Source: Alphaproteobacteria bacterium LSUCC0684 (GTDB lineage: Bacteria > Pseudomonadota > Alphaproteobacteria > Puniceispirillales > UBA1172). From it: a stretch of 64,000 nucleotides of DNA. The stretch lies in contig CP166130.1 of assembly GCA_041228335.1 (NCBI GenBank), forward strand, positions 186,001 to 250,000, given 5' to 3'. Every line of letters starts with the position of its first letter. Position 1 is the stretch's first letter. Under the pieces are notes generated by a model, which made no database searches, was not told the DNA's origin, and worked only from the letters and a program-made list of their open reading frames with translations. A program made the position numbers and the translations under genes. This document shows, piece after piece, positions 1 to 38,325 of the stretch.

Positions 1-2
1 AG

Positions 3-233
3 GTGCATGTTCATAGCGGAATGGATGTTGTCGGTGCTTGCCGTAAAGCCGGCGTGTCAGACAAGGCTTATTAATTTTGGCGCAAGAAGTTTGGCGGCAT
101 GGGGCGTTCACAGCTCAGCGAGATGAAGTCACTTCAGAAAGAGAATGATCGGCTGAAGAAGATCGTAGCTAAACTTGAGTTGGACAAGTTGATCTTGAAG
201 GAAAGCCTGGATATTTTAAAACCAAAGGCCTGA
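3..233 (+). pseudogene. IS3-family transposase OrfA remnant
   Basis: This frame reads like the distal part of an IS3-family OrfA: a helix-turn-helix stretch (DVVGACRKAGVSDKAY), then FWRKKFGGM, then a leucine-zipper-like coiled coil (ENDRLKKIVAKLELDKLILK) ending at TGA 231-233. An in-frame TAA at 72-74 interrupts it just after the DKAY residues, and no OrfB (DDE integrase) follows, so it cannot be functional. The gene may begin left of the window. IS3 elements normally make OrfA, OrfB and a frameshift fusion; only the OrfA part is left here. It lies directly upstream of the first tRNA-Phe-half repeat. Confidence 0.75.
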
Positions 234-260
234 CACGCGAAGAAAACGTCATGCCTGTCC

Positions 261-397
261 CCACAGTCAAATTTCATTACACACTTTTTAACACACCTGA
301 TTTTTCTGCCTGCAAGCCACTGATATAAAACAGGAAAAGTTAAAGCAGTTTTCTGAAAATCCGCGTGTCGGTGGTTCGAACCCGCCCCTGGGCACCA
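261..397 (+). repeat. tRNA-Phe-half repeat, copy R1
   Basis: This is the first of four dispersed repeats in the same orientation. Positions 353-397 match the 3' half of a bacterial tRNA-Phe: anticodon loop CTGAAAA (anticodon GAA), stem strand TCCGC, variable loop GTGTC, T arm GGTGG-TTCGAAC-CCGCC, acceptor strand CCTGGGC, then ACCA. The 5' half is missing; the upstream bases do not supply the GCGGA anticodon strand. The roughly 90 bp before it is not tRNA but is shared with the other copies. This is what a displaced tRNA 3' end looks like at the distal junction of an integrated element. Confidence 0.85.
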
Positions 398-478
398 CTT
401 ACTCATCATATTCCGCGTGTCGGGGGCAAGCACAACCTCCTCCGCCACCAACTTTTTTGCCAATACCTACAATTATTT

Positions 479-777: not shown

Positions 778-1383
778 ATGGTTTTCCGAGGCGCCATTTT
801 ATTTTTACTGTGTTTTCTGATTTCCTGTACTGGAATTCAAAACACACCTGATGCAAATTTCGCCCCCGATGAAAAATCTGATGATCCACTACAATTTACC
901 AATCAATGCGATAACCGTTTAGCCGAAAAAACCATTCTAATTGCTGAGGGTTCGCTAATCTTTTTGGACAGATCAGACAGCCCCATTCAAGAGTTAAATA
1001 TTATTTCTGGAGAGATGACATGCTCTCCTGCCATGCCAGAAAAATGGCTTGAACTGTCAAATAATGAAGCCAATCGCCTGCTTCTCTCACATGCCAACTC
1101 GATTTCATCTGAAAATTGGATAGTTGCAGGAAAAACCATTGCACAAGTTCAAGATACCTTCGTTGGATTGTGTCTGAAATATGATCTGGGCACTGTCTTT
1201 GCTGTCAATGAAACCCGCACATCCGTCATCACTGGGTGCCAGGTATCCCCCGATGCGCGCCAGGCTGTGATGATAGAATTCATTTTGGATGATAGCCAGA
1301 TCTCAATCACGATGATGTGGCCAAAGGGATTGGAAAATTCAGCAAGGAAGATTGCCCAAGCATTCGAAAATGAAAAAGACTAG
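778..1383 (+). CDS. Predicted lipoprotein of unknown function
   Basis: This 201-residue protein has a short N-terminal hydrophobic segment ending in a lipobox (FLISC-T), so it should be lipidated at the cysteine near residue 17. A TTG two codons upstream is possible, but ATG 778 gives a normal leader. The rest is a mixed soluble domain with several cysteines (QCDN, MTCSP, GLCLK, GCQV). No family is recognised. It converges on the type II secretion operon, and its last 4 bases overlap the end of the prepilin peptidase gene. A role as outer-membrane assembly factor for the secretin is possible by location only. Confidence 0.6.
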   Translation: MVFRGAILFLLCFLISCTGIQNTPDANFAPDEKSDDPLQFTNQCDNRLAEKTILIAEGSLIFLDRSDSPIQELNIISGEMTCSPAMPEKWLELSNNEANRLLLSHANSISSENWIVAGKTIAQVQDTFVGLCLKYDLGTVFAVNETRTSVITGCQVSPDARQAVMIEFILDDSQISITMMWPKGLENSARKIAQAFENEKD

Positions 1384-2030
1384 CCAATAACGTGGATGAT
1401 AGCAGCGGTTCCAGCCATGTAAGGTATCAGGGGAATTTCTCGATCTAATACATCGTTTCTACTATTTAACATCCCCCGCGCTAGAATATGACCTCCTAGC
1501 GCGGCAGCACTGAAAAGCGTAATCCAAACTGAAATTCCATGGGGGTTCATCCCCAAGGAAAGAGCAAAGATTAAAGGGGGATCTGCTTCTCCAAGGGCGG
1601 CATGACCCAAGTATTTTGAAATAAAGCTAGCCAGAACCCAAATTCCACCTGCGCAGCAAGCTGCATATATATAATCAGTGAACAACATGCCTTTGTCTGG
1701 CCATAGTCGAAAAAAATGATAGCTGATCAAGATGCATACTGTAGCCACGAGAAATACTACCGGAACTGTTCTACTTGCCAGATCTTCAATACACAAAAGT
1801 CCAAGACATCCAAGTCCTGTGGCCAGCAAATATAATGCCGGGCTGATCTCGGTTGTAACTCCTGGTCCTCCATGAGATCTGGCCATTACAGCCCAGAGGA
1901 TGAGCAGGATCAGACAAATTATCCCCCCACGGCGAAACAGAACATGTAAAACAGTCCTTGATCCAAGGTAATGCGACAAGAAAATAATCGGTATTATCCC
2001 GACAATAAGAATCAATAAAACGACGGTCAT
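1380..2030 (-). CDS. gspO: Type II secretion prepilin peptidase (A24 domain only)
   Basis: This is a polytopic membrane protein of 216 residues. It has the two aspartates expected of A24 prepilin peptidases: one in CIEDLASRTVP, the other in GEADPPL, a variant of the GxGD motif. It would cleave the leaders of GspG-K on the cytoplasmic face. The N-terminal cysteine-rich methyltransferase half of standard GspO/PilD is absent, so it resembles the short archaeal-type or TadV-type enzymes in build. It is the last gene of the gsp operon and overlaps gspM by 4 bases (ATGA). The weak GxGD match leaves some doubt. Confidence 0.72.
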   Translation of the reverse strand: MTVVLLILIVGIIPIIFLSHYLGSRTVLHVLFRRGGIICLILLILWAVMARSHGGPGVTTEISPALYLLATGLGCLGLLCIEDLASRTVPVVFLVATVCILISYHFFRLWPDKGMLFTDYIYAACCAGGIWVLASFISKYLGHAALGEADPPLIFALSLGMNPHGISVWITLFSAAALGGHILARGMLNSRNDVLDREIPLIPYMAGTAAIIHVIG

Positions 2031-2419
2031 TTTCTGTCTGTTGTTGAGATGATTTTGGCAGAGATGCTCAGCTTTTCACCTCTTCGCTGTAATTGAAAGA
2101 TGCTTACATTCCATGCCGGAAGCCTGAAGATTGCTTCAACCCATCGAGCAAGTTGATTAACTTCCAAGTCTTGTTGAGTGATTATAGTGTATTCAGCTGT
2201 AGTGACGATTTCGATACCAGCGTTACTTCCAAAATGCCTTTGCCAATATGAATTTTCGATCTTGTCAGGTTCAATGCCTTGTGCCAATTGGAATGTGAGT
2301 GACTTGCTCTGTTCATTCCATTCGCTATAGATATTGTCGAAAGCCACGATCGCTCCAATCATCAAAACAACTGCTGTGCCTAGAATTAACATACGGATTT
2401 TTACAGCCGGGTTTCGCAT
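2027..2419 (-). CDS. gspM: Type II secretion protein GspM
   Basis: This is a small bitopic inner-membrane protein of 130 residues: a short cytoplasmic tail, one membrane segment at about residues 10-30, then a periplasmic ferredoxin-like domain. That is the build of GspM, which pairs with GspL in the assembly platform. The ATG at 2419 is preferred because it lies one base after the gspL stop; an upstream ATG at 2455 would force a 35-base overlap. Sequence conservation in this family is low, so the call rests mainly on size, topology and position between gspL and the prepilin peptidase. Confidence 0.7.
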   Translation of the reverse strand: MRNPAVKIRMLILGTAVVLMIGAIVAFDNIYSEWNEQSKSLTFQLAQGIEPDKIENSYWQRHFGSNAGIEIVTTAEYTIITQQDLEVNQLARWVEAIFRLPAWNVSIFQLQRRGEKLSISAKIISTTDRK

Positions 2420-2420
2420 G

Positions 2421-3353
2421 CTAATTTTTCCTGACAATAATTGAGAAAACATCATCTTTGTCTGTCATGTTGATATCTGCATCTTCAAAAAGTCTCTTTA
2501 ATTCCAACAAATCTAGTTTAGGTTTGAGATTGAGTTGCAAGGACAACAGCCTTCCATCCTGTGCAATTTTAAATGTTTCAAGACTACCATTTTGCAGATG
2601 CGGTATAAGACGGGAAAACCAGTTCATCGCGGGAGGAGGCATCTTATTTGAAGCCTCTATCATCATCTTATTAACTTGTTTAATTCGCTCTTTGAGGATT
2701 AAGTTTCCACCGATCGCCAAAAAAATGATCGAAATGGTAATGATCAGACAGGTCCAAAAATACGTCTTGCGAGACAGAATATCGAAAATGCTGTTGCCTG
2801 TTCCAGAAGTCAGAAATTGCGCACCATCAGGATTGAATACCAACCCTTCAGGGTATGACAAATCTGATGCTGTTGCATTGTCGGCAATGATTTCTGCGGC
2901 ACCTTCCCCTTTTTCAAGTCCCAATACCAATGATCCAGACATCCACTGTAACTTTTTAGCTGAAGCCTCAAAACATAAAGGCTCTGCATAGCAGATACTA
3001 GCGTCAGGAAGGCCCCAGAAATTAAGCAAATCTCTTAGCCTATCTTTCTTAATCCAGGCCTGCCACACTTTGGTTTTTTCTTGATTTGCGGTCAGTTCCG
3101 TCCAGTAAAGTTCATCAGGGTTGTTTGGGGTATGATCACCAAAAAAGAACTCCTTGCTAGGGAATCTCATTCCATTGTGACTGTTCAGCCTCCAGGCCAA
3201 CATGCTTGCACCAATCAAAACAGCATCAATCTTGATTCGTTGATGTGGTTGCAATTCACCTTCATCAAATGTTTCAAGGAGTGACAGAATACCCTTGGAT
3301 ACACCGTATAGTTGTGCTTTAAATCGATTATTTATAAGTAATAGATGTTTCAC
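2421..3353 (-). CDS. gspL: Type II secretion protein GspL
   Basis: This 310-residue protein has a cytoplasmic N-terminal part of about 195 residues (actin-like fold in the family), one membrane helix at about 197-217, and a periplasmic C-terminal domain. GspL recruits the GspE ATPase to the membrane and binds GspM. It is shorter than the usual 380-400 residues, mainly in the cytoplasmic part. It overlaps gspK upstream by 4 bases and is followed at one base by gspM, which indicates tight translational coupling. Assignment comes from topology plus its place in a canonical C-to-M gene order. Confidence 0.75.
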   Translation of the reverse strand: MKHLLLINNRFKAQLYGVSKGILSLLETFDEGELQPHQRIKIDAVLIGASMLAWRLNSHNGMRFPSKEFFFGDHTPNNPDELYWTELTANQEKTKVWQAWIKKDRLRDLLNFWGLPDASICYAEPLCFEASAKKLQWMSGSLVLGLEKGEGAAEIIADNATASDLSYPEGLVFNPDGAQFLTSGTGNSIFDILSRKTYFWTCLIITISIIFLAIGGNLILKERIKQVNKMMIEASNKMPPPAMNWFSRLIPHLQNGSLETFKIAQDGRLLSLQLNLKPKLDLLELKRLFEDADINMTDKDDVFSIIVRKN

Positions 3354-4252
3354 AGAATATCACCCTCAAATTCAGGTATCCAGAGTATCTGTGTTGCAAC
3401 GATTTCACGTTTTCGATCAGCATGTTGATAGATCGTGAAGCTGGCAAACACTCGATCATTATCCAATAGATCAATGGTCCACCAACTTGGCTCTGATGAC
3501 AATGAAAGAATACTGAAATCAATGTTATTGATGGCATCGGGGGTTATTTTTTGAATTTCATTTTTCAGAGCTGATCTGTTGGTTATGACACCATCACGTA
3601 TGAAACTTTTTATCCTGATGAAATCAGTCACCCCGATGCCTAGCACCGCAGCACCCAATTTTGGCTCTGTGTGCAAAATCTCAAATCTGGCGATAAACGG
3701 GCGCATTTCGACACAACCTGCCAATTGAGAGAGCGTCTCTGCATCAAGAGAATTGCCATCTTGTAAAGTCAAAAGATGACGCGGCCGCATCTTGACAGGC
3801 GCGCGTCGTGCATACTCCACAAGGGGTATAACTAGATCTGAAGACAAACCGCAGCTCATAACAACACGGCGAAGAGTTTCATATTGATTCTCGTCCAGAG
3901 TTGCCATCGAAGCAATTCCATTCCAATTAAGCGCATGCGAAAGATTGTATAAGCCCCCGGTTAACCTGACGCGCAAAGACTGCGTTGCGGCGGTATCTTC
4001 TATCTGAGGGGCAAGAGGATCAATCTTCAATGCAGCTTCTTTATAACTATCGATTAAAGCCATAAACCGGGTCTGTCTTTGGAGGCTTTTGTATAGGTCA
4101 ATTTGTGCTTCAATTGATCTCTGCTGTAGGCCAAATTGTGTACTGAGTGCGATTAGCAATACCAGCAATCCTGGTAGAATAAGAGCTGTTGCACGCCGCC
4201 GCTTAAGCCAAGGGATGCGGAAAATAATTCTTATTGCCCGCTTCAACTTCAT
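3350..4252 (-). CDS. gspK: Type II secretion minor pseudopilin GspK (divergent)
   Basis: This 300-residue protein has an N-terminal hydrophobic helix after a basic run (LKRRRATALILPGLLVLLI) and a large periplasmic domain, as in GspK, the largest minor pseudopilin that caps the pseudopilus. It lacks an obvious G-F/V-xxxE leader-peptidase site, which is unusual even though GspK tolerates change at position +5. The ATG at 4252 lies four bases after the gspJ stop and is preferred to 4279, which overlaps gspJ. Order after gspJ and before gspL supports the call. A non-pseudopilin replacement in this slot cannot be excluded. Confidence 0.65.
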   Translation of the reverse strand: MKLKRAIRIIFRIPWLKRRRATALILPGLLVLLIALSTQFGLQQRSIEAQIDLYKSLQRQTRFMALIDSYKEAALKIDPLAPQIEDTAATQSLRVRLTGGLYNLSHALNWNGIASMATLDENQYETLRRVVMSCGLSSDLVIPLVEYARRAPVKMRPRHLLTLQDGNSLDAETLSQLAGCVEMRPFIARFEILHTEPKLGAAVLGIGVTDFIRIKSFIRDGVITNRSALKNEIQKITPDAINNIDFSILSLSSEPSWWTIDLLDNDRVFASFTIYQHADRKREIVATQILWIPEFEGDIL

Positions 4253-4256
4253 CGTC

Positions 4257-4790
4257 TCAGCCCGCCTCATTGGTATCAATGGAAAGAATGGTGGTGAAAG
4301 CTTTTTCTAGCAACTCTTCAGTGAGAGTAAGATCAAGCTTCCAGAGATCAGCACCTAAATACGTGAAGCTGGAGCTTATTGGCATGGTGCTAAATTGATG
4401 TGCTGACCATGACCTGTCATCCAAGGTGCTAATTTCGCGTTTTACACCTCCAGATCCAAGATGCCAGCCAATTCTTGCTAAAATCATTTGGCCATTTGCT
4501 GGATTAACGACAAATCGCTCAAGTTTAATTTCCAGTGTCGTCTTTTCTCCCCCTTCCTGAGGAGATGCATTCCTTCCATTAAATGTTAACGCGTTATTCA
4601 GATCAGCACGTAAAACCGCGAGGCCTGCCTCAATCCCGATAAAGGTATTGTTCCTTTTATCGAGATGTGAAAGCTGTTGGCTTCCCTGAAGTGCCATAAG
4701 AATTGCACCTGATAACACTGTGGCACTTAGGAGCAAGGCAACCAGAGTTTCAGTTAGAACAAACGCCTTTTTTCTAGTTCTAAACTTCAC
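4257..4790 (-). CDS. gspJ: Type II secretion minor pseudopilin GspJ
   Basis: The N-terminus RTRKKAFVLTETLVALLL is a prepilin leader with Ala in place of the usual Gly before the cleaved Phe, and Glu at +5 of the mature helix. The 177-residue length fits GspJ, which joins GspI and GspK in the pseudopilus tip. The gene is bounded by a 4-base overlap with gspI upstream and a 4-base gap to gspK. The Ala at -1 is tolerated by some prepilin peptidases and may match the atypical peptidase of this operon. Confidence 0.82.
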   Translation of the reverse strand: MKFRTRKKAFVLTETLVALLLSATVLSGAILMALQGSQQLSHLDKRNNTFIGIEAGLAVLRADLNNALTFNGRNASPQEGGEKTTLEIKLERFVVNPANGQMILARIGWHLGSGGVKREISTLDDRSWSAHQFSTMPISSSFTYLGADLWKLDLTLTEELLEKAFTTILSIDTNEAG

Positions 4791-5122
4791 CTGGTCTTTA
4801 CCTCTCTTGTAAAACTAGCACCATTACTATCCTGCAAGTGCATGGTGATAATTTGTGCATCAATACCATCCTCCTCTTGAACTAAAGACACCAGACTGAA
4901 AGCTTCATGGACCTTTACAGGCAATTTTTCAGCCAGTCCCCGACTATAAAGAAGATGAGCATTTGTTGCCGCACGCTCTCGTGACATGCGTTTCAGCATA
5001 GCCAAACTATGACTGTTCAAATTTTGCCAACCTTGCCAGAAAAAACTTGAAATAATTCCGAAGATCAGGAGTGCTATTAACGACTCCAGTATCAGAAAGC
5101 CCCTTTTTCTATTCGGAAGCAT
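4787..5122 (-). CDS. gspI: Type II secretion minor pseudopilin GspI
   Basis: This is a 111-residue pseudopilin with a short basic leader and a canonical cleavage site: RKRG then FLILESLIALLIFG, with Glu at +5. Length and position between gspH and gspJ match GspI, the organiser of the pseudopilus tip. It overlaps gspH by 14 bases and gspJ by 4, so translation is coupled across the pseudopilin block. Confidence 0.82.
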   Translation of the reverse strand: MLPNRKRGFLILESLIALLIFGIISSFFWQGWQNLNSHSLAMLKRMSRERAATNAHLLYSRGLAEKLPVKVHEAFSLVSLVQEEDGIDAQIITMHLQDSNGASFTREVKTR

Positions 5123-5453
5123 AGGTAAAATTCCCGGCTTTATCTATGCTCACCTCGCCCCATTTACAGCTTATCTTGGTTTGCTGGACTATCCCCCCTG
5201 CGCCCACAAGTACCTTTTGGGAACCACAGGCCAGGAGACCGACATCTTCAACAGGTCTGTCCTGAGCAATCGCCATCCGCCAAACAGCATTTCTTACAAG
5301 TTGCTGGTTTCGCTCTGAAAGAGATTTGTCGCTATAGCTTGTCAGATTTCCCAATCTTACATTCTGGCCAAATGAAACCAGAAGCGCGACAATCAATAAT
5401 GCTACGAGAACTTCAAGCAGGGCAAACCCTCCCGCTTTATGTTCAGTTTTCAC
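5109..5453 (-). CDS. gspH: Type II secretion minor pseudopilin GspH
   Basis: This 114-residue protein has a prepilin leader (HKAGG then FALLEVLVALLI, Glu at +5) followed by a short beta-rich tail with two cysteines (LLACGS, KISCKW) that could pair in the periplasm. In the family GspH links the major pseudopilin shaft to the I-J-K tip. The protein is shorter than typical GspH (about 150-190 residues), so assignment relies on order between gspG and gspI. It overlaps gspG by 4 bases. Confidence 0.72.
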   Translation of the reverse strand: MKTEHKAGGFALLEVLVALLIVALLVSFGQNVRLGNLTSYSDKSLSERNQQLVRNAVWRMAIAQDRPVEDVGLLACGSQKVLVGAGGIVQQTKISCKWGEVSIDKAGNFTYASE

Positions 5454-5851
5454 CGTCTTACCTCAATCTCAATATCATCACCTCCACCAACCTCCCCATC
5501 AGGACCAAGACAAAAAATGATAACCTGACCGCCAGCGCGAACACGATATTGATATCCATTCCCCCAAGGATCGATGGGCTTTTCAGCAAGATATACTCCG
5601 TTGGATCCACCTTCTGTCAGAATATCGAGACCTTGCGACTCAGTCGGTAAAGAGCCTTGATCGATGTAATAAAGTGACAAGGCAGCTTTGATTGATTCCA
5701 AATCGTTCTGGACTTTCAATTGTCGAGCTTGATTTGGTCGATCAAGAACCATCGGTGCAACAAAGGAAAGCAGAAGCCCAATAATTGTCAACACAACCAG
5801 GATTTCAATCAGAGTAAAGCCTGTAACTCGACGTGATCTTTTATTAATCAT
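5450..5851 (-). CDS. gspG: Type II secretion major pseudopilin GspG
   Basis: This has a textbook major pseudopilin start, RRVTG then FTLIEILVVLTIIGLL, and the conserved GspG body: PNQARQLKVQNDLESIKAAL, the YYIDQGSLPTESQGLDIL loop, and PIDPWGNGYQYR before a C-terminal acidic loop (DGEVGGGDDIE) like the calcium site of the family. At 133 residues it has normal length. It forms the pseudopilus shaft that acts as the piston of the secretion system. It overlaps gspF and gspH by 4 bases each. Confidence 0.95.
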   Translation of the reverse strand: MINKRSRRVTGFTLIEILVVLTIIGLLLSFVAPMVLDRPNQARQLKVQNDLESIKAALSLYYIDQGSLPTESQGLDILTEGGSNGVYLAEKPIDPWGNGYQYRVRAGGQVIIFCLGPDGEVGGGDDIEIEVRR

Positions 5852-7029
5852 TGAACCAAACTTTCAAATTGTGTCTGCATCGATATCATTGGTATCACCA
5901 CGGCCATAGCTACGATGAATACAATTAGGCCAATTATAATAACAAAAACTGGGCCGGTGATTTGCGAAATAATAGTCGCTGAATAATGACGTTTTTCCTC
6001 AATTTCGGCTGCGATCAAGGTAACCACCCGCTCAAGATGGCTACTCTTTTCAGCAGCTCTGAGTTGGCTTAACTCACGCCGGTTCAAGAGTCGTGTCTCT
6101 TTCAGGGCTAATGAAAGAGGGATACCATGCTGAATTTGCTCTAGTGCCTTTTTATAAAATTCAGAAAGGGCTTCATTTCCCAAAGCCGCTGAAGCTAGGA
6201 CGAGTGCCCGCGGAAGAGGAAGGCGGCTTTCCAGACCTAGTGCTAAAATTTCAAAAAATTGGCTTCTTGCTGATGAAATAATGAAATATCGGGAAACTGG
6301 AAATTTTATTAGAACCATGTCCAACCAGCGTTTTATACCTGTATGCCGCCGAAGTAGAGCAATAGGAAACAGAACCAGTAATAAAGCCCAAATGATAAAT
6401 TCGACAAGCGCACCAAATCTGCCAGACAAAGACAAAATGAACTGGCTGATAGGAGGTAATTCAACTTGATTTGGAAAAGCTGTCTGTAGGCCTGGGAGAA
6501 CAACATCAAACAAGATCCAAGCTACAATAAAAGTAGCAACCAGAACAACGCTAGGATAGGCAAGCACAATGCGCATTTGTCGTTGCCTGCGAAGTTCTGA
6601 GTCATGTTTTTTTAATAACAGCTCACATGCATTTTCAAGTTCGCCGGCATTTTCACCAGCCTGAATTACAGCCAATATTTCCGGCGTCAGTGATGGGAAA
6701 GATTTTCTCAGGCCTTCCACCAATCCAACACCTATCTCCAGACGTCGTAAGATAACGGTGGATATATCTTTGATTTTTATATCATCATCATCCATCAGTA
6801 AGCTCAAGGCATCTGTCACGTTGTATCCTTGGCGAACGAACATGGCTAATCTGACTAGGAATTCCCAGAAAAGCTTAGTGCTATATTTCTTTATGCGCCT
6901 GATTGAGATAATTGATGTGCCTGCAAGCTTCAATTCTCTGGTAGCCTTTTCAAGGCTTCCCGATGACAGAATCCCGCTTACCCGATCCTGACCAGACTGT
7001 CCGATATACAAGAATTCTTGCATATTCAA
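5848..7029 (-). CDS. gspF: Type II secretion inner-membrane protein GspF
   Basis: This 393-residue protein shows the duplicated GspF/PilC domain: a cytoplasmic helical bundle, then membrane segments at about residues 160-185, 208-228 and 360-385. Characteristic stretches include SLLMDDDDIKIK, FPSLTPEILAVIQAGENAGEL and, in the second repeat, ALEQIQHGIPLSLAL with GP-rich membrane segments at the end. GspF is the polytopic platform protein that couples GspE to pseudopilus assembly. Overlaps of 4 bases with gspE and gspG place it in the same transcript. Confidence 0.92.
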   Translation of the reverse strand: MNMQEFLYIGQSGQDRVSGILSSGSLEKATRELKLAGTSIISIRRIKKYSTKLFWEFLVRLAMFVRQGYNVTDALSLLMDDDDIKIKDISTVILRRLEIGVGLVEGLRKSFPSLTPEILAVIQAGENAGELENACELLLKKHDSELRRQRQMRIVLAYPSVVLVATFIVAWILFDVVLPGLQTAFPNQVELPPISQFILSLSGRFGALVEFIIWALLLVLFPIALLRRHTGIKRWLDMVLIKFPVSRYFIISSARSQFFEILALGLESRLPLPRALVLASAALGNEALSEFYKKALEQIQHGIPLSLALKETRLLNRRELSQLRAAEKSSHLERVVTLIAAEIEEKRHYSATIISQITGPVFVIIIGLIVFIVAMAVVIPMISMQTQFESLVQ

Positions 7030-8432
7030 CCATCCTGCTCACTTACACGTGCGACCTCAAAGAAGGGGGCCAAACCCTGCTCAAACAAATCTCTGGCCTC
7101 TATTGCAAGAGTTGAAGCACAGGCCAGAGAGTGAATGTCCTTTAATGCTATGTCTCGGTTTCGGGCTGTCATTATCAGATGCTCCATTATGGGAACGCGG
7201 CCTGCGAAACCAGTAAAGAAGCAATCCCTACATCCCTTGAACATAACCGGCAAAGATGTTTTATGTTCTTCACTCGAAAGAGATTCCGATCGGCATTCAG
7301 GGCAATAGGTCCTTATCAGCCGTTGATTAAATACCCCCAGCAAAGCATCAGCAATCAGCCCAATATCAACATTGAGATCCAGCAGACGCATGATAGCCCC
7401 AAGAGGGCTGTTGGCATGAATTGTTGCGATCACCAGATGCCCCGTGAGTGCTGCTCGAATTGCTGTGCTTGCAGTTTCCTGATCGCGAATTTCACCAACA
7501 AGTAGTACATCAGGGTCGTGACGAAGAAGTGCACGTAGTCCTGAAGCAAAGTTAAATCCAATGGCGTCATTTACCTGCGATTGAACAATCCCTGGAATTT
7601 CGACCTCAACCGGATCTTCAATTGTCATGATATTGAGCCCGCGCCCACGCAACATGTTTAAAATTGAATATATAGTTGTGGTCTTCCCCGAACCGGTTGG
7701 GCCACAAACCAGTATAATTCCAGACTGGTGGGAAACTGTTTTGGAAATCACCTCAACATGTTGCTGTGACAACCCAATCTGCTGGAGTGTCTTTTGCCCA
7801 TTCAGGTGACGGAAAAAACGAAGAACAACACGCTCATTTTCCTGGACTGGCAGACTTGCTATACGAATGTCAACTGGAGCACCGCCATAAGTAAGGCCGA
7901 TACGACCATCCTGGGGGCGTCGTCTTTCGGTTATATCCAGCCTTCCCAATATTTTGAGACGTGCAATCATCATTGGAGCAAGACGAATATCAAACTCGGT
8001 AAAGTGTGAAAGCACACCATCTATACGCATTTTCACACGAAAGGCATTCTCATCGGTGTCAAAATGCAAATCAGAGGCGCCACGGGAAATTGCCGCCGTC
8101 AATATCGCGTCCAGCAATCGCACGATAGGGGCATCAGCCTCATTTGATGAATTCAATGCTAGACGTGCGACTGCATCAATTTCAGATAGTGACACTTGTT
8201 GGCCAAGAGAAACAAGTGCTTTGGGGCTGGTTTTTTCTTCAAGTTCATCTAACGAATTTTTAAGTTCAGAAGCCGAAACTTGCTTGCATAATACTTTGTA
8301 ATCACCTGATTGCGTAATATCCTGAAGCAGATAAGGATCAATAGGCTGGCTGTGAATTAATGTGAGTACTTTGCCGCTGGCGTCAAAATTACAAGCTATG
8401 CCAAATTTAGCCATGCTCTTCGGATTAATCAT
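7026..8432 (-). CDS. gspE: Type II secretion ATPase GspE
   Basis: This hexameric secretion ATPase has 468 residues. Visible motifs are Walker A GPTGSGKTTT, the aspartate box MTIEDPVE, Walker B LLVGEIRDQETA, the histidine box TGHLVIATIHAN, and a four-cysteine zinc site (TYCPECRSE and FKGCRDC) specific to GspE/PilB proteins. The N-terminal 100 residues form a reduced N1E-like domain that would dock on GspL. It acts on the cytoplasmic face and powers pseudopilus extension. It overlaps gspD and gspF by 4 bases. Confidence 0.95.
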   Translation of the reverse strand: MINPKSMAKFGIACNFDASGKVLTLIHSQPIDPYLLQDITQSGDYKVLCKQVSASELKNSLDELEEKTSPKALVSLGQQVSLSEIDAVARLALNSSNEADAPIVRLLDAILTAAISRGASDLHFDTDENAFRVKMRIDGVLSHFTEFDIRLAPMMIARLKILGRLDITERRRPQDGRIGLTYGGAPVDIRIASLPVQENERVVLRFFRHLNGQKTLQQIGLSQQHVEVISKTVSHQSGIILVCGPTGSGKTTTIYSILNMLRGRGLNIMTIEDPVEVEIPGIVQSQVNDAIGFNFASGLRALLRHDPDVLLVGEIRDQETASTAIRAALTGHLVIATIHANSPLGAIMRLLDLNVDIGLIADALLGVFNQRLIRTYCPECRSESLSSEEHKTSLPVMFKGCRDCFFTGFAGRVPIMEHLIMTARNRDIALKDIHSLACASTLAIEARDLFEQGLAPFFEVARVSEQDG

Positions 8433-10240
8433 TGCTGGTTGCTCGAATTTTGATCGATTTGAAGTGACGGGAAGGATCCATCAGGCTTAAAAAACTTGAA
8501 GACCTTGCGATCAATTGCAGTTGCGTCCTCCCCCGGCCCGGACAGGAATTTCTGGTTTTCTGTTTCAAGTTCTTGCTGCTTTAGGTCAAGTATTTTGATC
8601 CGTGCAGGTTGTGTTGTCATTAATGTAGGCCTTAAAAAAATCACCAAGTTGGTATTGATTGTTCTTACCATCTCCTGACGAAAAAGAAGACCAAGGCCGG
8701 GTAGATCGCCAAGGAAAGGAACTTTTGTCGTCATCCGTTCCGTCTGCGTGTCACGCAAACCGCCGATGGCTATTGTTTCGCCTGGCCTGGCCCGGATGAC
8801 GGTGGATATTTCTCTCTTCTTTGTTGCCACATCACTTAGCCCTGTAGTCGCGCTATCCAGCCCAGATACCTCCTGCTGAATTTCAAGAATGAGATCGTTA
8901 TTACTACCAATTCTGGGCTTAACCTTGAGGCTAATCCCCAAATCCTCGCGTTGAATGGTTTGGAAGGGTGAGGCTGTCTGATTCCCACTATCAGATGAAT
9001 ATTTACCCGTGATAAAAGGAACATTCTGCCCCACCAGAATTACGGATTCTTGATTTTCTAGTGTCATCAGGCTTGGTGTGGCAAGGATACGGTTATCGGC
9101 ATCTCCTTCAATAGCCGTGAGAAGAATGCCAAGATCCGGCAGTGCTGACGCACCGCCGCCAACAGCCAGCATACCGCCTGTTAATCCAGATAGCATTGTG
9201 TTGCCAACAACAGATCCCTGGCTTAACCCGCCTGTGGTTGAGCCCTGCGCTACCCCCAAGACACCCTTGCGACCTGAAAATTGAAGCCCCAATCTACGCG
9301 TGGAGTTTTCAGATATTTCAGCAATAATAGCATCAACGAATACCTGCCTTGGTTCTCGATCCATTTGAAGAATTAGAGGCTCAATCACCTCAAGCCAATC
9401 AACGGTGCCAACCAGGACAATCTGGTTGGATTCCGAATGGGCCGTCATGCTTCCTTTTCCGTCAAGACCACTTAGGGAGATGATTTTCTCAAGGCTTGCC
9501 ACAACTGTTTCAGCAACTGAGAAACGCATGTCAATGATTCTGCTGGCAATCTCGCTTTCATGTTGATGTGCTGGATTGGAAACCGTCGCTGTAGTCGCTA
9601 CTTGAACTGGGGCAACATCAATATTGTTCTGTGGTAGGCCAGATAATTCTGCTAATAGGTCTTTGACACGATCTATCTGCGATTCTGATCCGATGAGGAT
9701 GACGGATTCGGATGACAGACCATCATTGACAATGCCCAGAGACCTCAATTCCGGATCAAGACCGACCAATTGCTCCAACCCTCGACGGTCCAACTTGCTT
9801 TCAAGATTTAATCTTGTGACTTTTTTGGGAGGTTGCTTGTCAGCAGTCTGGGTGGGTTGAGTTAGTCTGTGAGAAGATGCAGAATTTTCATTATCTACAG
9901 TTTTTGGCAAATCTCTGATTTCATTGGAAGATATCGGCAGCACTCGATAACTCTTGGCATCAATCTGTTCCAGGGCGCCACCTAAAGACGTGAGGATAGA
10001 TTCCAGATACTCATGGGCATTGGTTGGTGTAATTTCATCACTGGTTAGAAAGGTAATGGTTTTTTCTGAACGCAAATCATCCGTATATATATAATTTGTA
10101 ACGGCAGAGAAGGTTGCCAGCACGGATGAGAGCGGCGCATCAATGAACCGCATGGTTTCAGCCTGAGCCGGTAAAAACCTTCCGATGCAAAAGGCAACAG
10201 CAAACAAACAAGATAAAATTTTGTTATTTGGTAATCTCAT
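8429..10240 (-). CDS. gspD: Type II secretion secretin GspD
   Basis: The 603-residue precursor starts with a signal peptide (cleavage after PAQA), then an N0 domain (MRFIDAPLSSVLATFSAVTN), N1-type modules, a low-complexity linker and the C-terminal secretin barrel. Secretin signatures include VFVDAIIAEIS, LATPSLMTLENQESVILVG and VPFLGDLPGLGLLF near the end. It forms the outer-membrane channel. It is somewhat shorter than many GspD proteins, consistent with fewer N-modules. Its last residues are polar (QNSSNQQ), and no S-domain is obvious. It overlaps gspC and gspE by 4 bases. Confidence 0.94.
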   Translation of the reverse strand: MRLPNNKILSCLFAVAFCIGRFLPAQAETMRFIDAPLSSVLATFSAVTNYIYTDDLRSEKTITFLTSDEITPTNAHEYLESILTSLGGALEQIDAKSYRVLPISSNEIRDLPKTVDNENSASSHRLTQPTQTADKQPPKKVTRLNLESKLDRRGLEQLVGLDPELRSLGIVNDGLSSESVILIGSESQIDRVKDLLAELSGLPQNNIDVAPVQVATTATVSNPAHQHESEIASRIIDMRFSVAETVVASLEKIISLSGLDGKGSMTAHSESNQIVLVGTVDWLEVIEPLILQMDREPRQVFVDAIIAEISENSTRRLGLQFSGRKGVLGVAQGSTTGGLSQGSVVGNTMLSGLTGGMLAVGGGASALPDLGILLTAIEGDADNRILATPSLMTLENQESVILVGQNVPFITGKYSSDSGNQTASPFQTIQREDLGISLKVKPRIGSNNDLILEIQQEVSGLDSATTGLSDVATKKREISTVIRARPGETIAIGGLRDTQTERMTTKVPFLGDLPGLGLLFRQEMVRTINTNLVIFLRPTLMTTQPARIKILDLKQQELETENQKFLSGPGEDATAIDRKVFKFFKPDGSFPSLQIDQNSSNQQ

Positions 10241-11055
10241 TCACTGAATTCCAACATGATCAATCTGTTGTCCCGTTGCACTTCAACTTGAAATATCTGG
10301 CCCTTTTGTCTTTTTGTTATATGTTTTTGTATTTCTTCAAGTCTTTGGGAAGGGATTCCATCTACTGCCAGAATGATATCACCTCTATGCAGATTGATCC
10401 CAAATTTTTTTAAAAGAGGGGGGGCAGCGTTAACTTTCCAGCCAGGTCGCCCGCCCCGGCTTCTTGCTGGTTCAACATTTCCCGCAACAAGATGTATAAA
10501 TTGTTCTGGGATTCCTGCTTCTGCAGCCAGCTGCTCCACCTGATCGGTCGGAACATTGGTCAGGCCATACATGGGCCCCTTTTGGGGCATCAGATTTGAA
10601 GCTGCTTTTTGTCGTTGGACACCCAGAAAGCCAATACCTTGTGCTGCGCCTGGGGAGAGTGGAGCCTGTGAAACTTGCGACTTATCTTTCGCAACTTCAC
10701 TTAGAAATAATACAAAGGATAAACCATCGGCATCTTCAAAAATCACTTTTTCATCGGAAACTGAACTCAATATTAACTCTCGACCCGAGAGAACATATCT
10801 ATCACCTGGTACCATAAAGATGGGAGAACTGCCTTCGAATGAAACAACAATAGATGTAAATGAGGGATTTAGGTTTACCGCAAAGACCTTACCATCTAGT
10901 GGCATCGTCGCTGGTCTTTCCAAAAAAAGGCGTTTCCATATGCCCTCATCTGGGAATGTTGAGGCTGAAGCTTCCAAACACAGACAATATAAAGACAGAA
11001 AAGTGACAGACAGCGTCAAAAGCCGCTGTCTTATCACAAGATAAATTGAAACCAT
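10237..11055 (-). CDS. gspC: Type II secretion protein GspC
   Basis: A 272-residue bitopic protein has an N-terminal membrane anchor, an HR-like beta domain (about residues 50-130), and a C-terminal PDZ-type domain ending NLHRGDIILAVDGIPSQRL. GspC bridges the inner-membrane platform and the secretin and helps choose substrates. The ATG at 11055 has an AGGA ribosome site seven bases upstream, so it is preferred to the TTG at 11082. It is the first gsp gene, 36 bases after the large exported protein, so both are probably on one transcript. Confidence 0.85.
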   Translation of the reverse strand: MVSIYLVIRQRLLTLSVTFLSLYCLCLEASASTFPDEGIWKRLFLERPATMPLDGKVFAVNLNPSFTSIVVSFEGSSPIFMVPGDRYVLSGRELILSSVSDEKVIFEDADGLSFVLFLSEVAKDKSQVSQAPLSPGAAQGIGFLGVQRQKAASNLMPQKGPMYGLTNVPTDQVEQLAAEAGIPEQFIHLVAGNVEPARSRGGRPGWKVNAAPPLLKKFGINLHRGDIILAVDGIPSQRLEEIQKHITKRQKGQIFQVEVQRDNRLIMLEFSE

Positions 11056-11091
11056 TTTGCTATCCTGTACAGGAAGCATCAAGTTGTGTCA

Positions 11092-13473
11092 TCATGGACA
11101 GGTTGCAACTCCATGAACAATATCACAACTTGTTGCATCTATACTTGGAATATCAGACCAATCCACATTAACTGGACGAGGATATGTATCATTATCCGTG
11201 ATATCCGGGACGCTACTCATTGTAAATCCAATTTCAGACACATTAGTGAAATCAATACTGGAGCAGTTCGACATATTAGTTGATGTAAAGGAATAACCGA
11301 TTTCTGCCGCCTTTACAACGTAACTGTTCCCTTCGGTATCTGTAAGTGTTGTTCCGTTTTCAAGATTCACAAGCTGCAACCATATTGTTTGATTGTTGCC
11401 TGCTGAATCTACCCCTGGAAGACCATGTATATTCTCACCATCATATTCAAGAAGGAATTTTCTTCCATCGAGATCATTGGGGGTGACGTTTGAACACGCG
11501 TAGGTTCCGTTACTTTCTGTACAGAGGGATTTCACAGGGTTGTAATCTGAAGTGGTTGTAAAGCTTAGGGAAGTCCCCTCATTTACATCGCTTGTCTTTG
11601 CATATGTGTAATTGAACTTAAGCGGGTCATCGAGTTTTACGCCCGTTCCGGAACTATTGAAGATCATTACCGAATGATGCCAAGGATATGCACCAATATT
11701 CCATTGGTATTCAGGGCAATTCCCTGGAGATTGTACAGAACAAGTTCCTGCATCAACCTCTGATTTCAGAATAAAGTTAAAGGACTTTTCAGGCCAATCA
11801 CCATTATAAGTTCCAGTAGCGCTGGCGTCCCAATCGGTATACTCACCTTGACCAGTTACCTTGAAATCAAATCGCAGCGGTGTATCAGATGACGATAAAG
11901 CCCCACTATCATCTGTATCGTGGTACATCGTGAACGCCTCATAGCTTCCGCCTGGGGTTTTCCCTGTATAGAAATACAGATCACCTGTCGACCCATTCAT
12001 AAAACCATCATTTCTTTGTGAGGCATAATCAGACAGGGTCATATTTGTATAGTTTGCACCTGTTGATGCTGATCCAGGGCAGCTGTTTTCAGCGCAATAA
12101 AAGCTTGTGCTCGTTGCCGATGCCATGCTTGATGTGGCATTAATATATGATTGCACAAAAAAAGATATGCTGGTTGAATTTCCTCCCGACCAGTAGACTT
12201 GCGTTCTCTTAAGATCAGACCACATATACCCATACCAGGGACTGTTTGAAACTTCAGCCCCGGTCAAAGTGCCTTGTGATGACCCATTAGAATCTGTCAG
12301 GTTAAATTGACTATTTGCAGCATCCCACGTCGCATAATAACCTCCCCATGTTCCCGAGTCATTTGGACCCCACCAGCGAAAACTATCACCATTTACAAGT
12401 GATTCCGTTTCTTCAGACAAACTGGAGAGTTTCCCCGGTGACCAATAAAATGTAACAGAACTTGAGTCACTGTTCTTGGTTGCGGAAACCGTTGGCGAAG
12501 ATGGAGAAAAAGGGTTTGCATCATTATCAAACCAGGTGCCCCAACTCCCGATATACCCTCGCGTGCCTCCTGCTGTTTCGAAGCCATATCCCGCATCAAG
12601 AGATACAGCTGCGCCGGAGGAGGCATCAAAAAGCTTGTAGCCATAATTATTTGCCCATTTGGTTGATCTGGACAAGCACTGATCAGTGGAAGTATCGACA
12701 ACACCAGAACTGTTGACATATGCTTTGTAATAATAGTTTGCGCTAGTCTGCCCTGCTGTTCCAGTGATCGATGTTGAACCGTTGTTGGTTGTGGTTGTTT
12801 TTCCAAGAAACTTAACGGTGTCGGTGTCACCGTTAATGATGCTGAACGTTGCGGCGTTAACTTGACTATAACCTGTTTCAGAATATAGTTCTGCTACATC
12901 TAGCGTAATATCTGAGCCGTCCTGGGTTATGGAAGTAAAGCCATTGTCGGTGGAAGCAAGGTTGCTCGTTGTCAGATCAATTGAAGAGCCTGAAGCCCCT
13001 TTCCTCTCTTGGAAAAAGGAAAAATACCACGCCCCGAAAGGAGGCAATGTCTCAGCGTCAGAATTGATTGTAACATTTGCAATGTAACGGTCGGAGTTTG
13101 AAGACAAAAACCATGCTGTAACTTCTTGCGGCGATGAGTTCGATGCTCGCGAAGACGTCAAAATAGTTTTCGCGAGCTGCTTGCCATTTTGACTATTATC
13201 TGAGCCCAATCCACAGGCCACTTCATCAATAAGTGCCTGCCAGTTCCCATTAACATGTTGGGAAAGATCACCTCTAGAGTTTTTGATAATACATGCAAAT
13301 GAATTTGCAAGGCTTATCAACTCATTTGCAGAATCTTCAGTCCATTCTTCCACAGATTGATTGGAATAGTCTGTCCCAGCATCATTGTAAGCTGCCATCA
13401 AGGGTGGTGCGTTAAGTATTACAGCTGAGATAACGATTGCAGTTTTTACCAAATGTATGTTGAAACGCTTCAT
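11092..13473 (-). CDS. Large exported protein, candidate type II secretion substrate
   Basis: This is a 793-residue protein with a Sec signal peptide (MKRFN, hydrophobic core, cleavage after PLMA). The ATG at 13473 follows a GGAG site; the ATG at 13485 overlaps that site. The mature chain is rich in Ser, Thr, Gly, Asn and Trp, as in secreted beta proteins. It contains one EF-hand-like loop, DTDDSGALSSSD, at about residues 520-531, and several scattered cysteine pairs. I recognise no catalytic domain. It lies directly upstream of gspC in the same orientation, which makes it the most likely dedicated cargo of the system. It could instead be a surface component. Confidence 0.75.
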   Translation of the reverse strand: MKRFNIHLVKTAIVISAVILNAPPLMAAYNDAGTDYSNQSVEEWTEDSANELISLANSFACIIKNSRGDLSQHVNGNWQALIDEVACGLGSDNSQNGKQLAKTILTSSRASNSSPQEVTAWFLSSNSDRYIANVTINSDAETLPPFGAWYFSFFQERKGASGSSIDLTTSNLASTDNGFTSITQDGSDITLDVAELYSETGYSQVNAATFSIINGDTDTVKFLGKTTTTNNGSTSITGTAGQTSANYYYKAYVNSSGVVDTSTDQCLSRSTKWANNYGYKLFDASSGAAVSLDAGYGFETAGGTRGYIGSWGTWFDNDANPFSPSSPTVSATKNSDSSSVTFYWSPGKLSSLSEETESLVNGDSFRWWGPNDSGTWGGYYATWDAANSQFNLTDSNGSSQGTLTGAEVSNSPWYGYMWSDLKRTQVYWSGGNSTSISFFVQSYINATSSMASATSTSFYCAENSCPGSASTGANYTNMTLSDYASQRNDGFMNGSTGDLYFYTGKTPGGSYEAFTMYHDTDDSGALSSSDTPLRFDFKVTGQGEYTDWDASATGTYNGDWPEKSFNFILKSEVDAGTCSVQSPGNCPEYQWNIGAYPWHHSVMIFNSSGTGVKLDDPLKFNYTYAKTSDVNEGTSLSFTTTSDYNPVKSLCTESNGTYACSNVTPNDLDGRKFLLEYDGENIHGLPGVDSAGNNQTIWLQLVNLENGTTLTDTEGNSYVVKAAEIGYSFTSTNMSNCSSIDFTNVSEIGFTMSSVPDITDNDTYPRPVNVDWSDIPSIDATSCDIVHGVATCP

Positions 13474-13514
13474 AATCTTCTCCATCGAACAACTGTCTAC
13501 AATATAACGGTTGG

Positions 13515-13679
13515 TTAATTCGCTGGAACCGCCGACACAGAACTAGGCGTCAGCATCCCACTTGTCGCAGTGGAAGTGCTCGATGAGGATGAAGAAGATC
13601 CTCCCCCGCATGAGCCAAGAAACGTTGCAAGCATCAAGAGAATCAGGGCTTTTCGGAATTGAACACTTGTACCAAACAT
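13515..13679 (-). CDS. Small lipoprotein ahead of the gsp operon
   Basis: This is a 54-residue open frame. It has a basic N-terminus, a hydrophobic core (ALILLMLATF) and a perfect lipobox LGSC, followed by a Gly/Ser/Thr-rich tail containing a run of seven serines. The ATG at 13679 has GAGGTGAT upstream as a ribosome site. It would be an outer- or inner-membrane lipoprotein with a very short unstructured mature part. It lies 41 bases before the large exported protein and may be the first gene of the secretion operon. A pilotin-like or anchoring role is only inferred from position. Confidence 0.6.
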   Translation of the reverse strand: MFGTSVQFRKALILLMLATFLGSCGGGSSSSSSSTSTATSGMLTPSSVSAVPAN

Positions 13680-14372
13680 ATCAATCACCTCGCAAATCAG
13701 TAATAATTATGGTGAAATCAAAACATGTTTATCATTGTAGTCATGCAATTAGCCTGCTTTGAACTAGTTTCAATCTCTTATCTAAAATATCTTATATTTG
13801 ATTATTTCAAAATAAAATTCTTTTTTCTAGACTAGTAACATAGTATCACTAAGGAACATGATATTCATATTTCATTGAAAGCGAACGTATCATCACGTTC
13901 CTTGATCAAAAAAGATGCGGTGATGGGTAATGCCCCATTCCACTAGTATTTACCTGGTTCCGGGTTGCTCATGCCTGTTTGTCAATGAAATTGTGCCCCA
14001 GTTATGCCTGAGATGTCAGAAATGAGACAGCATATAACGTTTAGCAAGCTAATGTTTGATGCCGGTATATTTTGTGATTTGGGTCGCTGTTGTGATCATG
14101 GTGCTGCTAGAGGGGATTTTGGAAGTATACGCTTACTAAGACACCTGCAACAGGTGAAGACAGACCATTAGCTCGGCAAATTGTCCCTCAAGTATTCTAC
14201 CTCAATTATTTCACGTTGATGGATGCCGTCTGAACTCAGGAATTTAAATTTATCTTTTTAATTCTTTAATTTTAAATTAGTGGCCTATGGTAATAAGGCG
14301 CAGAACATTTAGTTTTTCAAAAAGATATCAATTAAGAATGTTTGCATAGAAAAAATTGAAAAACTATCGAGT
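13680..14372. other. Non-coding stretch upstream of the secretion operon
   Basis: This interval of about 690 bases has no convincing gene. It must hold the promoter of the leftward secretion operon; the AT-rich segment at about 13740-13860 is the likely place. An imperfect inverted repeat lies at 13851-13862 (AAGGAACATGAT) and 13892-13903 (ATCACGTTCCTT), separated by 29 bases; it could be an operator or a hairpin. The rest up to the tRNA-Phe-half repeat shows nothing recognisable. Confidence 0.5.
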
Positions 14373-14497
14373 ATCATTACACACTTTTTAACACACCTGA
14401 TTTTTCTGCCTGCAAACCACTGATTATAAGCAGGAAAAGTTAAAGCAGTATTCTGAAAATCCGCGTGTCGGTGGTTCGAATCCGCCCCTGGGCACCA
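14373..14497 (+). repeat. tRNA-Phe-half repeat, copy R2
   Basis: This is the second copy of the dispersed repeat, in the same orientation as the others. The tRNA-Phe 3' half is at 14453-14497, from CTGAAAA to ACCA. The upstream shared part starts at TCATTACACAC, so this copy lacks the CCCACAGTCAA edge seen in R1 and R3. It separates the type II secretion module from the catabolic module that begins with indolepyruvate oxidoreductase, only 58 bases away. A reverse-strand open frame across it reads PGADSNHRHADF, a familiar false protein produced by antisense tRNA-Phe. Confidence 0.85.
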
Positions 14498-14554
14498 CTT
14501 TTTAGTAATCGAATGTAGGCACATTTAGTCCCCTACTGTTTGGCGATTAAACCA

Positions 14555-17995: not shown

Positions 17996-18048
17996 GATAT
18001 GCTCCTCTGATTTTCATCGAAAATGATATCACCACCTGAGCAGAATTA

Positions 18049-18097
18049 TTGACCAAATTATGCTATGTATATTTTATATTTTAGCAGATTATGCTAT
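18049..18097. promoter_or_regulatory. Lrp/AsnC-type operator and promoter region
   Basis: In the 112-base gap between the divergent oxidoreductase and regulator genes, the 10-base sequence ATTATGCTAT occurs twice in direct orientation, at 18057-18066 and 18088-18097, 31 bases apart (about three helical turns). Between them is TAGCA, the complement of the repeat core TGCTA. Regularly phased AT-rich repeats are typical binding sites for Lrp/AsnC octamers, so this is probably where the regulator acts on its own and the divergent gene. A TTGACC at 18049-18054 may serve as a -35 element. Confidence 0.5.
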
Positions 18098-18107
18098 TAT
18101 TTTTGCT

Positions 18108-18575: not shown

Positions 18576-18624
18576 GCGCCAAGAATACGAAGGGTGGAAC
18601 TTGGCCTTGTGGGTTGCCTTTTGG

Positions 18625-19743: not shown

Positions 19744-19778
19744 CTATGCCTCCACTATATTCATCAGCAATATGCCGG

Positions 19779-20126: not shown

Positions 20127-20149
20127 GATCTTCCTTTCCCCCCCTGAGC

Positions 20150-23157: not shown

Positions 23158-23174
23158 GGAAGAGATACAAGATC

Positions 23175-32415: not shown

Positions 32416-32558
32416 CCTGCCCCACAGTCAACTTCCATTACACAGTTTTTAACACACCTGATTTTTGGGCCTGCAAGCCACTGATTATATGCAGGAAAAG
32501 TTAAAGCAGTATTCTGAAAATCCGCGTGTCGGTGGTTCGAATCCGCCCCTGGGCACCA
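32416..32558 (+). repeat. tRNA-Phe-half repeat, copy R3
   Basis: This third copy includes the full shared flank beginning CCTGCCCCACAGTCAA, close to the left edge of R1. The tRNA-Phe 3' half is at 32514-32558. It differs from R1 at scattered positions in the flank (for example CACAGTTTTT for CACACTTTTT and TTTTTGGGCC for TTTTTCTGCC), while the tRNA part is nearly unchanged. It marks the right border of the module ending with the peptide-type importer. Confidence 0.85.
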
Positions 32559-32721
32559 CTTTTCCGTTTTATTTCAATGCAGTATGACGCTTCAATACGA
32601 GGGGCGGTTGCTAATGCCGGGCTTCATTTGTTTGTTGAATTCATCGTCTTGAACAAAGATGAACGCCATCAGCCGTAAACTAAAGTGATAGGTTAAATGA
32701 GTTAGATCCGATGAACCAAGG

Positions 32722-37863: not shown

Positions 37864-38167
37864 GTTTTGGGTAGTGTCCTGACCCCGGTATAAATTTACT
37901 TTAAGAAGCGCAGCAGCTTCCAGGGTGGCCTGATAAAAATCAGCATCAATCTGAACCTGTCCCAAGAAAGTTTAGGGAATAAGAGGATAAGGGTGGTGAT
38001 ACCGCAAGATCGATCAAGACGGATGATACGTAGAAATCACCTTTTTTTCTTATAAGCCAAAAGGAGAGAACAGGGCTAATAGCATCAGGACGCCTTTGAC
38101 GTATTGATGAGGTCACGAACCCAGTCATGAAAATCTTTCAAGGGGAATTCTTCGGGAAAATTGAGCC
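37864..38167. other. Non-coding stretch before repeat R4
   Basis: These 304 bases hold no intact gene. On the minus strand a short protein-like end, FPEEFPLKDFHDWVRDLIN, reaches a TGA at 38085-38087 just before the repeat; it may be the tail of a truncated gene, but I cannot name it. Nothing else is recognised. Confidence 0.35.
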
Positions 38168-38325
38168 CCCGCAGTCAAATTCCATTACACAGTTTTTAAC
38201 ACACCTGATTATTGGGCCGTTAAAATACTGAAATAAAACAGGAAAAGTTAAAGCAGTATGCTGAAAATTCGCGTGTCGGTGGTTCGAATCCGCCCCTGGG
38301 CTTCGAACCCAGCCCCTGGGCACCA
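38168..38325 (+). repeat. tRNA-Phe-half repeat, copy R4, with internal duplication
   Basis: This is the fourth copy. Its tRNA-Phe half runs 38261-38325 and is 20 bases longer than the others, because the T-arm/acceptor part is partly duplicated: CCGCCCCTGGGC is followed by TTCGAACCCAGCCCCTGGGC and then ACCA. It also has TTCGC in place of TCCGC. Only 2 bases separate it from the integrase-start repeat at 38328, an arrangement typical of a recombinase attachment site next to its integrase gene. Confidence 0.85.

What the first reader, a model, noticed from the sequence alone, without database searches (positions are those of the whole stretch)
778..13679. Type II secretion system carried as an island module with its own candidate cargo
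Seen: gspC-D-E-F-G-H-I-J-K-L-M and a prepilin peptidase overlap by a few bases in one leftward operon, headed by a 54-residue lipoprotein and a 793-residue exported protein, all between repeats R1 and R2. Known: T2SS operons are usually core genes serving many substrates. Inference: here the system may move as a one-system, one-substrate unit.
Basis: partly seen in the sequence, partly recalled or inferred. Interest (0 to 1): 0.6.

Follow-up and report, generated by a model that had tools for sequence, protein, structure and literature searches.

The report
Island-borne secretion system with own cargo
A marine SAR116-type bacterium carries, in a patch of DNA inserted next to a tRNA gene, a whole type II protein-export machine together with a matched two-gene pair (a tiny fat-anchored protein and a large exported protein) that is probably what the machine puts on the cell surface; mobile export machines with a built-in cargo are already known, but this cargo pair has no name in the databases searched.

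Summary
Confirmed and extended. Window 1380-13679 (-) holds an intact operon: 54-aa lipoprotein, 797-aa exported protein (793 from the inner ATG), gspC-M, and a GspO-like gene. It lies between repeats R1 and R2, whose 3' ends are the last ~45 nt of tRNA-Phe. The intact tRNA-Phe gene is 5 kb upstream; four copies delimit modules of differing GC, a tRNA-end island. The operon is absent from the 11 other family genomes searched. Among 136 genomes of the order, the exported protein and its GspD occur in exactly the same three genomes. In the two relatives the cargo also adjoins gsp genes, at another locus without a nearby tRNA. The lipoprotein+exported-protein pair also occurs in 29 of 296 Vibrionaceae genomes, always as a pair (29/29), without adjacent gsp. 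In other lineages the same domain sits in one-piece lipoproteins. The small lipoprotein is therefore the cargo's partner, not a secretin pilotin. Best reading: a self-contained T2SS plus a surface protein whose lipid anchor is a separate gene. Island-borne T2SS and self-contained T2SS/substrate units have precedents; the pair matches no Pfam, NCBIfam or PHROGs family convincingly. GspO and the export itself are unproven.

The parts
259..400 (+). R1: direct repeat, element-specific ~97 nt followed by 3' ~45 nt of tRNA-Phe (att-like left border)
778..1383 (+). 201-aa lipoprotein (lipobox ISC), convergent to the operon; role unknown, pilotin not excluded
   Evidence: no Pfam/NCBIfam hit
1380..2030 (-). 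GspO-like putative prepilin peptidase, 216 aa
   Evidence: position; two Asp motifs by eye; no A24 HMM hit; model uninformative
2027..2455 (-). GspM-like, 142 aa
   Evidence: position/size; no HMM hit of meaning
2421..3353 (-). GspL-like, 310 aa
   Evidence: position/size; no HMM hit
3350..4279 (-). GspK-like, 309 aa
   Evidence: position; syntenic GspK of relative passes Pfam T2SSK
4257..4790 (-). GspJ-like minor pseudopilin
   Evidence: position, N-terminal prepilin-like motif
4787..5122 (-). GspI-like minor pseudopilin
   Evidence: N-methylation motif, sub-threshold
5109..5453 (-). GspH-like minor pseudopilin
   Evidence: N-methylation motif over cut-off
5450..5851 (-). GspG major pseudopilin
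   Evidence: T2SSG Pfam and TIGR01710 over cut-off
5848..7029 (-). GspF platform protein
   Evidence: PF00482
7026..8432 (-). GspE ATPase with CxxC...CxxC
   Evidence: PF00437 363 bits, TIGR02533 best NCBIfam hit
8429..10240 (-). GspD secretin
   Evidence: PF00263/PF03958, TIGR02517 best NCBIfam hit
10237..11082 (-). GspC, PDZ
   Evidence: PDZ_2 over cut-off; weak TIGR01713
11092..13485 (-). Candidate substrate: 797-aa (793 from inner ATG) exported protein, signal peptide then AYNDAG; six Cys columns invariant across 18 homologues
13515..13679 (-). 54-aa lipoprotein LGS|CGGGSSSS...LTPSSVSAVPAN, conserved partner of the exported protein
14359..14500 (+). R2: direct repeat, att-like right border
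32420..32561 (+). R3: further copy bounding the next module
38167..38308 (+). R4: further copy

Best explanation
The 14-kb module is one unit of a tRNA-Phe-associated flexible island. It encodes a complete, divergent type II secretion system that works as a self-contained machine for a linked cargo. Shown: intact gspC-M frames; tRNA-Phe-end repeats on both sides; absence from close relatives; co-occurrence and linkage of the cargo with gsp in SAR116; strict pairing of a short lipoprotein with the exported protein across two classes; one-piece lipoprotein versions of the same domain elsewhere. Inferred: the exported protein crosses the inner membrane with its signal peptide, folds with disulfides in the periplasm, leaves through GspD, and is held on the cell surface by the short lipoprotein, which carries a Gly/Ser/Asp/Asn-rich stretch after its lipid-bearing cysteine like T2SS-sorted lipoproteins and a C-terminal motif that may bind the cargo. 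Purpose inferred only broadly: surface display (adhesion, matrix or binding).
For: Operon intact with T2SS-type GspG/E/D/F/C. Island: intact tRNA-Phe at genome 181369-181444; its 3' end matches six places in the genome, itself included, four of them R1-R4; module GC 0.436 vs 0.57 in the upstream flank and 0.48-0.51 in other genome stretches sampled; a viral contig carries only the 3' 46 nt of tRNA-Phe next to a tyrosine recombinase, so this end does serve as an integration core. Absent from 11 other family genomes. Cargo and GspD in the same 3 of 136 order genomes (chance 2.4e-6 if genomes were independent, 0.005 counted by genus); gsp adjacent in both relatives (G016's gspD-L sit on another contig). 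Lipoprotein precedes the cargo in 29/29 Vibrionaceae loci and 3/3 SAR116. One-piece lipoprotein forms. Window cargo is nearer the Vibrio subgroup whose lipoprotein tail (STPSTVSVV) resembles its own (LTPSSVSAV). Gly/Ser/Asp/Asn-rich stretch: mean 0.85 in 32 pairs vs 0.46 in 9 other lipoproteins, p 1e-4 (many pairs are close kin); T2SS sorting motif from PMC12802150.
Against: No export data. Two of the three SAR116 genomes are one genus, so co-occurrence rests on about two independent cases. Gsp is not linked to the cargo in Vibrionaceae. No gspN in the operon, though GspN is needed for lipoprotein substrates in Acinetobacter (PMC12802150); the rest of the genome was not searched for it. The SAR116 relatives' lipoproteins have weaker motifs (0.43, 0.57) and lack the C-terminal motif. 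GspO unproven. Cargo fold unknown (AlphaFold pLDDT 32).
Confidence: 0.6

Rival explanations
1. The exported protein is merely a neighbour; the T2SS serves several other substrates and the pair uses another route or stays periplasmic.
For: In Vibrionaceae the pair has no adjacent gsp and no conserved neighbours. No direct test of export.
Against: Same three genomes in the order, adjacency in two different gene orders. No RTX repeats and no autotransporter or other secretion-domain hit in any of 18 homologues. Vibrio ouci, checked, has a T2SS secretin.
Confidence: 0.22
2. The 54-aa lipoprotein is the pilotin of GspD, and only the 797-aa protein is cargo.
For: Small lipoproteins near gsp operons are often pilotins (AspS, PulS; PMC3542185).
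Against: It accompanies the cargo gene, not gsp, in 29/29 Vibrionaceae loci; one-piece lipoprotein forms of the cargo domain exist. The convergent 201-aa lipoprotein is an alternative pilotin candidate.
Confidence: 0.08
3. An old, vertically inherited SAR116 T2SS lost from most lineages, only later enclosed by tRNA-end repeats (concerns origin; can hold together with the best explanation's function).
For: The three SAR116 GspD sequences form one group (SH-aLRT 96-97). Relatives carry it at a locus without tRNA nearby.
Against: Long branches, and the window GspD is unplaced when the two relatives are left out; the group lies outside the main alphaproteobacterial clade; absent from all 11 other family genomes.
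Confidence: 0.2

Closest known systems
E. coli T2SS-beta with SslE and AspS ('self-contained' unit; PMC3542185, PMC3707838)
   Same: Complete gsp operon with the substrate gene immediately upstream; substrate is surface lipid-anchored; in Vibrio the substrate homologue is dispersed from the gsp operon.
   Different: Different substrate family; here the lipid anchor appears to be a separate small gene; AspS homology not tested here.
Klebsiella Pul system (pullulanase; PMC12802150)
   Same: T2SS with a surface lipoprotein substrate.
   Different: Pul has PulN/GspN; none seen in this operon. No pullulanase-type domain in the cargo by family searches.
'Ca. Methylopumilus universalis' MH-M5 insertion cluster with gspCDEFLMGHIJKO (PMC10872708)
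   Same: Complete T2SS carried in a flexible insertion of a streamlined aquatic bacterium, with hypothetical proteins; an additive island in the same study is marked by recurring tRNA 3' ends.
   Different: Gene order differs (C-D-E-F-G-H-I-J-K-L-M-O here); such clusters are bordered by xerC there; its hypothetical proteins were not compared.
tRNA-end additive flexible genomic islands / tycheposons (PMC10872708)
   Same: tRNA 3'-end repeats bounding cargo modules.
   Different: No recombinase seen near the repeats; repeat copies carry an extra ~97 nt.

Membership tests
Type II secretion system | Major pseudopilin GspG | tested here: met
   TIGR01710 104.3 bits over cut-off 88.85; Pfam T2SSG
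Type II secretion system | Secretin GspD of T2SS type | tested here: inconclusive
   TIGR02517 is the best NCBIfam hit (261.8 bits) but under its cut-off 351.35; groups with other T2SS GspD in trees
Type II secretion system | ATPase GspE and platform GspF | tested here: met
   PF00437 and PF00482 strongly; GspE best NCBIfam hit TIGR02533, below equivalog cut-off
Type II secretion system | GspC with PDZ/HR | tested here: met
   PDZ_2 over cut-off; weak TIGR01713
Type II secretion system | GspK, GspL, GspM | tested here: inconclusive
   No HMM hit in the window; relative's GspK passes T2SSK
Type II secretion system | Prepilin peptidase | tested here: inconclusive
   No A24 hit in the window; relatives' O proteins are A24; model uninformative
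tRNA-integrated genomic island | tRNA gene at one end and 3'-end direct repeats | tested here: met
tRNA-integrated genomic island | Integrase in the element | tested here: inconclusive
   None seen by eye among ORFs listed in the island region; no HMM scan for integrases was run
tRNA-integrated genomic island | Absent from relatives | tested here: met
   GspD and cargo absent from 11 other family genomes
T2SS surface lipoprotein substrates (PulA, SslE, InvL) | Lipobox followed by Gly/Ser or Asn/Asp-rich sorting motif on the substrate itself | tested here: not met
   The exported protein has an ordinary signal peptide; the motif is on the separate small lipoprotein (CGGGSSSS)
T2SS surface lipoprotein substrates (PulA, SslE, InvL) | GspD-dependent surface display | not testable with these tools
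   needs bench work
T2SS surface lipoprotein substrates (PulA, SslE, InvL) | GspN present | tested here: inconclusive
   Not in the operon; rest of genome not searched

The most novel reading that the evidence does not exclude
A split surface lipoprotein: a T2SS cargo whose lipid anchor and T2SS sorting signal are supplied in trans by a tiny co-encoded lipoprotein, so that an unlipidated exported protein is surface-tethered; the unit occurs with its own T2SS in island DNA and, in other lineages, as single-chain lipoproteins.
Probability: 0.35. Interest if true: 0.7.

Novelty: new member of a known kind. Interest (0 to 1): 0.45.

Why it matters
If right, it gives a natural two-part test of how the T2SS handles lipid-anchored cargo: anchor and cargo are separate genes in some lineages and one chain in others. 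It also adds a marine case of a T2SS carried with its candidate substrate inside a tRNA-end island.

Tried and rejected
AlphaFold of the 797-aa protein with 4 sequences (pLDDT 32) and of the GspO-like protein with 3 (pLDDT 41): too poor to use, so no fold search was run. PDB profile search of the cargo family: one hit at E 0.094 (VP3), treated as chance. PHROGs: no hit for the three cargo proteins scanned; a weak spanin hit for the small lipoprotein (E 0.0056) treated as a signal-peptide/lipobox resemblance. Plasmids, phages and viral contigs: no cargo relative. The element-specific part of the repeats was not found in viral contigs. Pilotin reading of the 54-aa lipoprotein: rejected, see rivals. 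A related but different system is present in the genome: a PilB/PilC/secretin locus at 1.055 Mb and a TadA-like ATPase at 1.066 Mb, so the window's is the only gsp operon found by the GspD/GspE searches but not the only type IV filament system.

Full report
Location. The window is bases 186001-250000 of a single-contig 2.70-Mb genome. Two relatives of the same order are titled as SAR116-cluster alphaproteobacteria, which is the basis for calling this one SAR116-type.

The operon. From right to left on the minus strand: a 54-aa lipoprotein, a 797-aa protein with a signal peptide, gspC, D, E, F, G, H, I, J, K, L, M and a 216-aa membrane protein. All frames are open. GspG passes the curated T2SS model; GspE, GspF and GspD match their families strongly; GspC has a PDZ domain. 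K, L, M and J match nothing; a syntenic GspK in a relative passes Pfam T2SSK. So T2SS is well supported, with J, K, L, M and the peptidase assigned by position.

The island. Four 142-nt repeats in the window end in the 3' ~45 nt of tRNA-Phe. The intact tRNA-Phe is at genome 181369-181444, 5 kb before R1. Another copy lies at 975.5 kb, and weaker ones at 264.2 kb and 1778.2 kb, the last ending in a different, tRNA-like sequence. A viral contig holds only this 46-nt end followed by a tyrosine recombinase (L174), and another contig has tRNA-Phe beside an integrase (L172). The recombinases were recognised by eye. The T2SS module is 43.6% G+C against 52.8% for the next module and 57% for the upstream flank. 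No integrase was recognised by eye in the island ORFs listed; no integrase HMM scan was made. The module's mobility is therefore inferred from structure and distribution.

Distribution. Neither the cargo nor its GspD is found in the 11 other genomes of the family. In 136 genomes of the order both occur in the same three; a fourth (G012) has gspC and the start of gspD at a contig end, so it is uninformative for the cargo. In relative G014 the cargo follows gspM and the prepilin peptidase gene lies beyond it; in G016 the cargo lies between a gspM-like gene at the contig end and the peptidase gene, with gspD-L on a second contig. Neighbours are htpG and a gamma-glutamyltransferase-like gene, and no tRNA lies in the stretches scanned. 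GspD trees join the three SAR116 sequences (SH-aLRT 96-97) outside the main alphaproteobacterial group, but branches are long and the window sequence is unplaced when its two partners are left out. Horizontal origin is plausible, not proven.

The cargo pair. Relatives of the 797-aa protein occur in 29 of 296 Vibrionaceae genomes. In all 29 a short lipoprotein gene ends at or within a few tens of bases of the cargo start; all three SAR116 loci have one too. No gsp gene was found in the flanks examined: 20-kb stretches for 14 loci, 17 kb for one more, and about 1.5 kb on each side for the rest. No other neighbour was linked to the pair across the loci compared, beyond stretches shared by a few closely related genomes and one ABC-type family at varying distances. 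Vibrio ouci has a T2SS secretin elsewhere. Five genomes of one other genus, and one further genome, carry the domain inside a lipoprotein of one chain. No member matched a Pfam or NCBIfam family above noise. Six cysteine columns are invariant in 18 sequences, fitting an extracytoplasmic disulfide-bonded protein.

Mechanism. Acinetobacter T2SS lipoproteins need a Gly/Ser or Asn/Asp-rich stretch after the lipid-bearing cysteine, and GspN (PMC12802150). The small lipoproteins here are richer in Gly, Ser, Asp and Asn at that place than nine other lipoproteins from the fetched DNA (0.85 vs 0.46), although the sample is small, related sequences inflate it, and the two SAR116 relatives are weak. Four one-chain homologues that a first background set had included were taken out of the background for that figure. 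GspN is not in the operon. The preferred model is surface display of the exported protein via T2SS with the short lipoprotein as anchor; each step beyond the gene-level facts is inference.

Known or new. Complete T2SS operons in flexible insertions (PMC10872708) and self-contained gsp/substrate units whose substrate is dispersed in Vibrio (PMC3542185) are already described. What appears undescribed in the libraries searched is the cargo pair.

Noticed in passing
L015 15942-16571 (genome ~181.9-182.6 kb): 209-aa protein beside tRNA-Phe that reads like a DddL-type DMSP lyase, followed by DUF1800/DUF1501-like genes; by eye only.
   Followed up: no
window 1-240 and L015 end: IS3-type orfA remnant abutting R1, without orfB before the repeat; by eye.
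   Followed up: no
window 47589-51806, 51834-53498: Histidine-utilisation-like genes (hutF, hutI, hutH, hutU) beside LIV-type transporter genes; by eye.
   Followed up: no
window 14501-32419: Module 2 with indolepyruvate ferredoxin oxidoreductase-, dimethylglycine dehydrogenase- and MttB-like genes and a peptide ABC transporter, bounded by R2/R3; by eye.
   Followed up: no
window 38328-38469 and 62935-63076: Second 142-nt repeat (D2, 98% identical) starting 20 nt after R4; meaning unknown.
   Followed up: no
L013 10028-19913: PilB/PilC and a PilQ/GspD-like secretin locus in the same genome, with a TadA-like ATPase nearby.
   Followed up: partly
L106-L110: 1490-1830-aa lipoproteins with VIDGPVTGSTVTL-type repeats upstream of the cargo domain.
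   Followed up: partly
L174 7772-9037: Viral contig with only the 3' 46 nt of tRNA-Phe next to a tyrosine recombinase.
   Followed up: partly
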